10,048 nt of DNA, taken from Actinomycetes bacterium (lineage in GTDB: Bacteria > Actinomycetota > Actinomycetes > Mycobacteriales > Mycobacteriaceae). Under the pieces are notes generated by a model. It saw nothing but the letters and a program-made list of their open reading frames with translations. It ran no database searches and was not told where the DNA came from. A program made the position numbers and the translations under genes. The DNA lies in contig JAHZJY010000202.1 of NCBI GenBank assembly GCA_022600695.1, forward strand, positions 1 through 10,048, written 5' to 3'. Below, piece after piece: positions 699 through 950 of this stretch (the first letter of the stretch is position 1; every line of letters starts with the position of its first letter).

Positions 699-950
699 AT
701 GGCAGACCCACAAATTATGGCCGGCGCTCTGATCGGTGGCGGTCTCATCCTGGGCGGCGGCGCCATCGGCGCCGGGATCGGCGACGGCATCGCCGGTAAT
801 GCTCTGATCTCCGGTATCGCTCGCCAGCCCGAGGCTCAGGGCCGGCTGTTCACCCCGTTCTTCATCACTGTCGGTCTGGTCGAGGCGGTGTACTTCATCA
901 ACCTGGCGTTCATGGCGCTGTTCGTGTTCGCCACCCCCGGTGCCTCCTAA
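699..950 (+). CDS. atpE: F1Fo ATP synthase subunit c (proton-carrying rotor ring)
   Basis: This 83-residue two-helix proteolipid forms the rotating c-ring. Helix 1 spans about 8-40 and carries the glycine motif GAIGAGIGDG; the polar loop ARQPEAQGR is at 41-49; helix 2 spans about 52-78. Glu62 (codon 882-884) is the proton-binding carboxylate (M. tuberculosis Glu61, with one extra N-terminal residue here). Other residues of the M. tuberculosis bedaquiline pocket are present: Asp29 (28), Leu60 (59), Tyr65 (64) and Ile67 (66). The residue matching Ala63 is Val64 (GTG, 888-890), which is unusual. The start is fixed by the strong Shine-Dalgarno at 685-692, and atpF begins 6 nt after the stop. Identity is certain; the drug consequence of Val64 is inferred. 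Confidence 0.98.
   Translation: MADPQIMAGALIGGGLILGGGAIGAGIGDGIAGNALISGIARQPEAQGRLFTPFFITVGLVEAVYFINLAFMALFVFATPGAS

What the first reader, a model, noticed from the sequence alone, without database searches (positions are those of the whole stretch)
882..899. AtpE has valine at the M. tuberculosis Ala63 position (bedaquiline site)
Val64 (GTG, 888-890) follows the proton-carrying Glu62 by two residues and matches M. tuberculosis Ala63, while the neighbouring pocket residues (Asp28, Leu59, Tyr64, Ile66 equivalents) are unchanged. Changes at Ala63 reduce bedaquiline binding: Pro in selected mutants, and a natural Met in M. xenopi and M. novocastrense. Val has, to my recollection, also been seen in resistant clinical isolates. 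The organism may therefore be naturally less susceptible. That the residue is Val is read directly; the phenotype is inference.
Basis: partly seen in the sequence, partly recalled or inferred. Interest (0 to 1): 0.72.

Follow-up and report, generated by a model that had tools for sequence, protein, structure and literature searches.

The report
Natural valine at bedaquiline's binding site
An uncultured environmental mycobacterium carries, in both of the genes found for its ATP-synthase rotor subunit, an amino acid that is linked to bedaquiline resistance in tuberculosis bacteria, which suggests but does not prove that it is naturally less sensitive to that drug.

Summary
The window's atpE (699-950) has Val64 (GTG, 888-890) at the M. 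tuberculosis Ala63 position; Asp28, Leu59, Glu61, Tyr64 and Ile66 equivalents are unchanged. It is not lineage-wide: the 11 closest operon copies found (98% identical) have Ala, and Val is in 1 of 143 operon-type rows (134 Ala, 8 Met). New here: the genome holds a second, orphan atpE beside coaA, also Val. The copies differ at 29 of 216 bases and four relatives' orphans have Ala, so the change most simply happened twice. A susceptible subunit can block a mixed ring (PMC10269753, passages), so lower drug binding would need both genes changed. The phenotype is untested, and published MIC data for Val63 are confounded. Following position 63, I found a separate paralogue (AtpE2) in at least 33 of 396 same-genus genomes, residue 63 mostly Thr, usually beside TetR and glycosyltransferase genes: possibly natural protection against c-ring inhibitors. 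Its residues also appear to have entered a published 'susceptible' training set (PMC6541270, passages).

The parts
699..950 (+). atpE, F1Fo ATP synthase c subunit (83 aa), operon copy
   Evidence: ORF; NCBIfam PRK05880.1 157.2 bits against cut-off 120; one of two PF00137 matches in the genome
888..890 (+). GTG = Val64, the M. tuberculosis Ala63 position
   Evidence: read; aligned to Ala in solved chains; Val in 1 of 143 operon-type rows
882..884 (+). GAG = Glu62, proton-carrying glutamate (M. tuberculosis Glu61)
   Evidence: alignment
783..785 (+). GAC = Asp29 (M. tuberculosis Asp28), unchanged
   Evidence: alignment
876..878 (+). CTG = Leu60 (M. tuberculosis Leu59), unchanged
   Evidence: alignment
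891..899 (+). Tyr65-Phe66-Ile67 (M. tuberculosis Tyr64, Phe65, Ile66), unchanged
   Evidence: alignment
4..591 (+). atpB, subunit a, 5' end cut off by the window and contig start; of the 11 subunit-a contact residues named in PMC9516385, 10 equal the 7jg5 or the 8j0s chain and one (M. smegmatis Leu199) is Met
   Evidence: read by eye from the alignments (query starts at chain residue 58 and 56); Met there is common, 61 of 139 loci
957..1478 (+). atpF, subunit b
   Evidence: NCBIfam PRK05759.1-3 187.2 bits against 156
1484..2830 (+). atpH, fused b-delta subunit
   Evidence: NCBIfam PRK13428.1 615.1 bits against 328
2914..4560 (+). atpA, subunit alpha
   Evidence: TIGR00962 824.5 bits against 484.45
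4560..5486 (+). atpG, subunit gamma
   Evidence: PRK05621.1-2 434.6 bits against 317
5521..6957 (+). atpD, subunit beta
   Evidence: TIGR01039 813.6 bits against 462.85
6982..7347 (+). atpC, subunit epsilon
   Evidence: TIGR01216 81.8 bits against 67.25

Best explanation
Shown: the window's AtpE has Val at the Ala63 position; the same genome's orphan second AtpE has Val too; the close relatives fetched have Ala in the genes that were read; both genes are under strong purifying selection. Inferred: residue 63 sits two positions after the proton-carrying Glu61, on the outer face of helix 2 where bedaquiline docks on the c-ring. A larger, beta-branched side chain there should crowd the drug and lower its affinity while leaving Glu61 and proton transfer intact. 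If one ring draws subunits from both genes, and one susceptible subunit can block a ring, lower binding needs both genes to change, and both have. The organism is therefore probably less susceptible to diarylquinolines than M. tuberculosis, as a side effect of a natural change in the groove. The cause of the change is unknown; pressure from a natural c-ring inhibitor, or matching of two subunits that share one ring, are the likeliest.
For: Residue and codon. Two atpE genes, both GTG; the orphan passes the same subunit-c equivalog (159.8 bits against 120). Relatives: operon copies L004-L014, 11 of 11 Ala; orphans of G032, G390, G329 and G346, 4 of 4 Ala. The G000 copies differ at 29/216 bases, and the tree puts each Val gene among Ala genes: operon copy beside G317 (81/85), orphan inside a one-origin orphan group (93/94) (17 of 27 inner branches of that tree are weak). 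The orphan locus is the same in the four relatives: isoprenyl transferase gene, two ORFs of unknown family, atpE, coaA. pN/pS 0.025 for 5 orphans and 0.005 for 13 operon copies. A63 is a van der Waals contact (PMC11672644, PMC9516385, passages); a model of A63V gives a steric clash (PMC6541270, passages). A resistant atpE on a plasmid did not raise the MIC until the chromosomal allele was replaced (PMC10269753, passage citing an earlier study).
Against: No MIC or binding datum for this organism or protein. Ala to Val is small and may be tolerated; PMC6541270 also says that Ala63 itself makes no direct contact in its model. In the tables read, Val63 always accompanies an Rv0678/MmpR5 change, and in the patient series of PMC11878324 isolate Af.104, listed without Val63, has the same MICs as Af.103 with it. 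Site 63 is one of the more variable sites in any case (9th of 70; 3 of its 11 off-consensus rows are the two G000 genes, one counted twice), so two hits are less surprising than at a random site. Co-assembly of the two c subunits is assumed. The genome is an incomplete MAG (85.8%), and efflux genes were not examined.
Confidence: 0.55

Rival explanations
1. Neutral variation: residue 63 lies on the lipid-facing side of helix 2, where small hydrophobic swaps are tolerated; Val has no meaning for drugs and arose twice by chance.
For: Site 63 is the 9th most variable of 70 core sites, with Met, Ile, Thr, Val and Gly seen; Ala to Val is one base step from GCG. In AtpE2 the changed helix-2 contact residues are on that outer face too. 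Isolate Af.104 of PMC11878324 has the same MICs without Val63 as Af.103 with it (passage).
Against: Relative to their clades the core of the operon copy has one change and that of the orphan has two; sharing a site has a naive chance of 2/72 (all sites taken as equal, which they are not). Most of helix 2 is invariant. Tolerance for function would not stop Val reducing drug binding.
Confidence: 0.33
2. Gene conversion copied the Val codon from one atpE gene to the other.
For: Both copies use GTG; the stretch after it is identical in the two copies.
Against: Differences flank the codon closely: GCG against GCT just before it and GCG against GCA about 20 bases after, so the tract would be about 20 bases, and those bases are conserved in nearly all rows compared. 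Overall 29/216 differences.
Confidence: 0.1
3. Assembly or binning artefact: the Val codon, or the second gene, does not belong to this organism.
For: MAG with 401 contigs.
Against: Two contigs each carry Val; contamination 0.31%; the orphan locus has the same gene order in four other genomes of the clade and the orphan copies form one group.
Confidence: 0.02

Closest known systems
Natural Ala63Met AtpE of M. xenopi, M. novocastrense, M. shimoidei and M. flavescens
   Same: Natural replacement of Ala63 in AtpE with Glu61 kept
   Different: Met instead of Val. In the fetched loci the Met63 rows also carry Ala at position 25 (8 of 8 distinct loci), which the window lacks. Met63 rows form one group in the tree (6 rows) and are commoner (50 of 139 AtpE-like proteins) than the 2017 paper implies. 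High MIC is measured there, not here.
Ala63Val of bedaquiline- or WX-081-exposed M. tuberculosis
   Same: Same residue, same substitution
   Different: There it is found in one gene under drug pressure, together with Rv0678/MmpR5 changes in the strains whose tables I read; here it is in two genes of an environmental organism with no known exposure.
AtpE2 paralogues of Mycobacterium sensu lato, Mycobacteroides and Gordonia (named so here)
   Same: A second c subunit outside the atp operon, often with Thr, Val or Ile at position 63
   Different: AtpE2 is roughly 62-78% identical to the window protein (full-length matches), a separate clade (99/98) and mostly sits beside TetR and glycosyltransferase genes; no AtpE2 was found in the window genome (incomplete), and its orphan is a close duplicate beside coaA.

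Membership tests
F1Fo ATP synthase c subunit (AtpE, PF00137) | Profile match above curated cut-off | tested here: met
   PRK05880.1 157.2 bits against 120; PF00137 over cut-off
F1Fo ATP synthase c subunit (AtpE, PF00137) | Carboxylate in helix 2 and position between atpB and atpF | tested here: met
   Glu62 at 882-884; gene order atpB-E-F-H-A-G-D-C
Naturally bedaquiline-insensitive AtpE | Ala63 replaced by a larger residue in the operon gene | tested here: met
   Val
Naturally bedaquiline-insensitive AtpE | The known natural form: Met63 | tested here: not met
   Val, not Met; Gly25 unchanged, whereas Ala25 went with Met or Ile63 in every row that had it
Naturally bedaquiline-insensitive AtpE | Raised bedaquiline MIC | not testable with these tools
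   Uncultured MAG; no MIC looked up or known for it
AtpE2 cassette (described here) | Falls in the AtpE2 clade | tested here: not met
   Both window-genome copies fall on the AtpE side
AtpE2 cassette (described here) | TetR and GT1 glycosyltransferase genes alongside | tested here: not met
   Window: atp operon; orphan: no match to the reference TetR or glycosyltransferase in L135, neighbours isoprenyl transferase and pantothenate kinase

The most novel reading that the evidence does not exclude
Mycobacteria and relatives own an inducible natural immunity cassette against c-ring inhibitors: a TetR sensor, a macrolide/rifamycin-type glycosyltransferase that inactivates the compound, and AtpE2, a spare c subunit whose helix-2 consensus changes fall on the groove where bedaquiline binds (residues 58, 63, 64, 68). 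The window's organism lacks the cassette, as far as its genome is known, but has reached a related state by changing residue 63 in both of its c-subunit genes. Unknown natural products would then have been shaping this drug site before bedaquiline existed.
Probability: 0.3. Interest if true: 0.8.

Novelty: new variant of a known kind. Interest (0 to 1): 0.55.

Why it matters
It shows that the bedaquiline contact residue varies in nature in more ways than the known Met63, and that a mycobacterium can have two c-subunit genes changed at the same residue, the state that a mixed ring would need. The AtpE2 paralogue matters more widely. Two AtpE2 proteins tested pass NCBI's own AtpE equivalog, and public records name AtpE2 plainly 'F0F1 ATP synthase subunit C', Mycobacteroides included, so it can be mistaken for the drug target; one published predictor appears to have used its residues as 'susceptible' variants (A63T among them). 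If the cassette is immunity, natural c-ring inhibitors, a possible source of leads, are the thing to look for.

Tried and rejected
Gene conversion between the two copies was considered and found unlikely. A link to subunit a was checked: Met at the M. smegmatis a-Leu199 position is shared by the 16 other near loci listed and by 61 of 139 loci, so it does not explain Val. Enrichment of AtpE2 changes on drug contacts holds only within helix 2 (4 of 10 contacts against 0 of 20 other sites, p 0.008, chosen after looking) and not over the whole core (4 of 11 against 15 of 59, p 0.47). One plasmid record of 72,556 holds a partial AtpE2-like match (Tsukamurella, 56% of the query), so mobility was not pursued. 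Rfam search of the window: 0 matches at gathering scores. A script on cassette gene spacing printed nothing and is not used.

Rows dropped: 4 partial or odd AtpE2-like loci (L178-L181) were left out of the AtpE2 counts; 9 weak short second matches (31.9 bits or less; G062, G100, G120, G165, G211, G229, G260, G367, G393) were not fetched; so 33 of 396 is a lower bound. 2 of the 36 AtpE2 loci lacked full coverage and were left out (34 used), and L177 also out (33 used). 3 of 120 proteins were not parsed. The 143 operon-type rows hold 126 distinct sequences; the 146 rows also hold repeats of G000 and an orphan.

That AtpE2 is undescribed rests only on searches of an open-access library; most subscription papers are missing there.

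Full report
What is there. The window is a mycobacterial atp operon (atpB, partial, to atpC), followed by a cob(I)alamin adenosyltransferase gene on the other strand and murA. atpE is 699-950. Val64, GTG 888-890, stands at the M. tuberculosis Ala63 position, two residues after Glu62 (alignment to solved chains). For subunit a I read the 11 contact residues named in PMC9516385 (passage, M. smegmatis numbering) off the alignments by eye: 10 equal the 7jg5 or the 8j0s chain (taken from recall as M. smegmatis and M. tuberculosis), and Leu199 is Met, as in relatives.

Is it unusual? Among operon-type AtpE rows from the loci held, 134 of 143 have Ala, 8 Met and 1 Val, the window; merged by identical DNA, 117, 8 and 1 of 126. 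Among 139 AtpE-like proteins from the database none has Val: 85 Ala, 50 Met, 2 Thr, 1 Ile, 1 Gly. Those lists show 120 hits a search and are clustered at 90% identity, so a Val member inside a cluster would not show. The 11 nearest operon copies (98% identical) have Ala, as do three named MAG loci at 98% (L033-L035), which may be some of the same genomes. Val is thus particular to this species or strain. The genome is an unnamed MAG: 2.82 Mb, 401 contigs, 85.8% complete, 0.31% contaminated. Names of near records hint at sewage sludge and lake water.

A second atpE. The same genome has an orphan atpE on contig C50 (L002 1471-1716), which passes the AtpE equivalog. Upstream lie an isoprenyl transferase gene and two ORFs without Pfam or NCBIfam match that look like membrane proteins by eye; downstream and convergent, overlapping by 4 bases, is coaA (type I pantothenate kinase, 443.7 bits against 235). 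Four relatives (G032, G390, G329, G346) have the same orphan in the same order. The orphans form one group (93/94) and evolve under strong constraint (pN/pS 0.025). The four relatives' orphans have Ala; the G000 orphan has Val, again GTG. The two G000 genes differ at 29 of 216 bases, with differences close on both sides of the codon, so a copy from one to the other is unlikely, and two changes are the simpler reading. Not every relative has the orphan: G210 and G252, 100% and 97% complete, gave one match only.

Why two changes matter. The c-ring has nine c subunits (PMC11878324, passage). In M. abscessus, resistant atpE alleles on a multicopy plasmid did not raise the MIC, but replacement of the chromosomal allele did (PMC10269753, passage, citing earlier work). 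If both genes feed one ring, a change in inhibitor binding shows only when both have it. This fits selection, but also plain matching of partners, and site 63 is fairly variable anyway.

What Val should do. Residue 63 is listed among bedaquiline contacts (PMC11672644; PMC9516385 as M. smegmatis Ala67; passages). A model of A63V predicts a clash, although the same paper says that Ala63 makes no direct contact (PMC6541270, passage). Met63 species have high MICs (PMC5817190, whole text: M. flavescens above 2 ug/ml); that paper states that Ala63 is conserved in all other known non-tuberculous AtpE sequences, and it also reports two species with MIC 2 and no atpE change. A63V was selected with WX-081, always with Rv0678 changes, BDQ MIC 0.5 in those strains (PMC12188713, passages). 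It was seen in a patient's serial isolates with MmpR5 Leu142Arg, MGIT MIC 2, 4, 4, 8, 16; the middle isolate is listed without Val63 and has the same MICs as the one before (PMC11878324, passage), which speaks against a large effect on that background. Reduced susceptibility of the window's organism is likely but not shown.

Met63 has a partner. In fetched loci every Met63 row has Ala at position 25 (8 of 8 distinct loci), and no Ala25 row has Ala63. Among 127 proteins 45 of 50 Met63 rows have Ala25. The window keeps Gly25; the orphan has Val22, as 35 of those 50 Met63 proteins do. Met63 rows form one group in the tree (100/96, 6 rows), so this may be one inheritance rather than repeated covariation.

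AtpE2. The genus search turned up more distant second copies. I fetched 36 with a full-length open frame in 33 of 396 genomes, leaving out 4 partial or odd ones, and did not fetch 9 weak matches. They form one clade apart from AtpE (99/98 on 14 rows). Residue 63 is Thr in 24, Ala in 5, Ile in 4, Val in 3; residue 64 is Phe in 31 and Tyr in 5; all 36 keep Glu61. Of 92 database proteins that score closer to AtpE2 than to AtpE, 44 have Thr, 31 Val, 9 Ile, 6 Ala, 1 Ser, 1 Met; 22 of the 31 Val ones have Asn at position 28, and 2 of the 31 lack Glu61. In 27 of 36 loci a TetR regulator and a GT1-like glycosyltransferase both lie in the stretch fetched, next to atpE2 or one gene away, the glycosyltransferase before it, after it or on both sides; 2 have TetR only, 1 glycosyltransferase pieces only, 6 neither. 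The reference glycosyltransferases match EryCIII-like_C in Pfam; their best NCBIfam hit is the rifamycin-inactivating Rgt, far below its cut-off (115 and 97 bits against 800), so a family resemblance and not a function. TetR and glycosyltransferase ORFs overlap by 4 bases in both reference loci. Database names place AtpE2 in Mycobacteroides (one cluster on 463 contigs; M. chelonae and M. franklinii by name), Gordonia and several Mycolicibacterium. Against a role in bedaquiline resistance: strains of M. chelonae and M. franklinii had MIC 0.062 ug/ml (PMC5817190, whole text; not the strains), so AtpE2, if made, does not protect in that assay.

A possible error in print. PMC6541270 took as 'non-resistant' the differences among AtpE sequences of 23 susceptible species (passages). 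Eight such variants are named in the passages I read: I11L, L15T, N33A, A34Q, A45S, G58S, A63T, L68V. Seven of the eight are the residues of the Mycobacteroides AtpE2 proteins P0142, P0146 and P0154 (L15T is not), and five (I11L, A45S, G58S, A63T, L68V) occur in 0 of 143 operon-type rows. P0142 passes NCBI's AtpE equivalog (129.6 bits against 120). I infer that AtpE2 was aligned as if it were AtpE. I did not see the figure or its accessions.

Verdict. The residue is real, rare and present in both c-subunit genes found; it is a new natural variant at a known resistance position. The phenotype is inference. The AtpE2 cassette is the more novel lead, and its immunity role is a hypothesis.

Noticed in passing
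outside the window: G000:C50:29382-29627 (L002 1471-1716; L135 7383-7628): Second, orphan atpE of the same genome, also Val63, convergent with coaA; same gene order in four relatives.
   Followed up: yes
L141-L146, L155-L177, L182-L188: Divergent AtpE2 paralogues in at least 33 of 396 same-genus genomes, 27 of 36 loci with TetR and GT1-like glycosyltransferase genes nearby; residue 63 mostly Thr.
   Followed up: partly
P0142, P0146, P0154 (Mycobacteroides AtpE2): Seven of eight 'non-resistant' variants named in passages of PMC6541270 are residues of this paralogue, so that predictor's training set seems to mix paralogue and target.
   Followed up: partly
L091, L095, L099, L101, L103, L105-L107: Met63 AtpE goes with Ala25 (8 of 8 distinct loci) and forms one group in the tree.
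   Followed up: partly
L178 (G391:C80): AtpE-like ORF that matches AtpE up to the loop and then diverges (Asp at the carboxylate position); may be a chimera or assembly fault.
   Followed up: no
G301 (L189, L190) and G234 (L193, L194): Two genomes with two near copies of AtpE each whose printed sequences are identical; looks like a duplicated region or assembly duplication.
   Followed up: no
window 9718-10048: Contig ends about 330 bases after murA, where M. tuberculosis has its rRNA operon (recalled); no Rfam match in the window.
   Followed up: no
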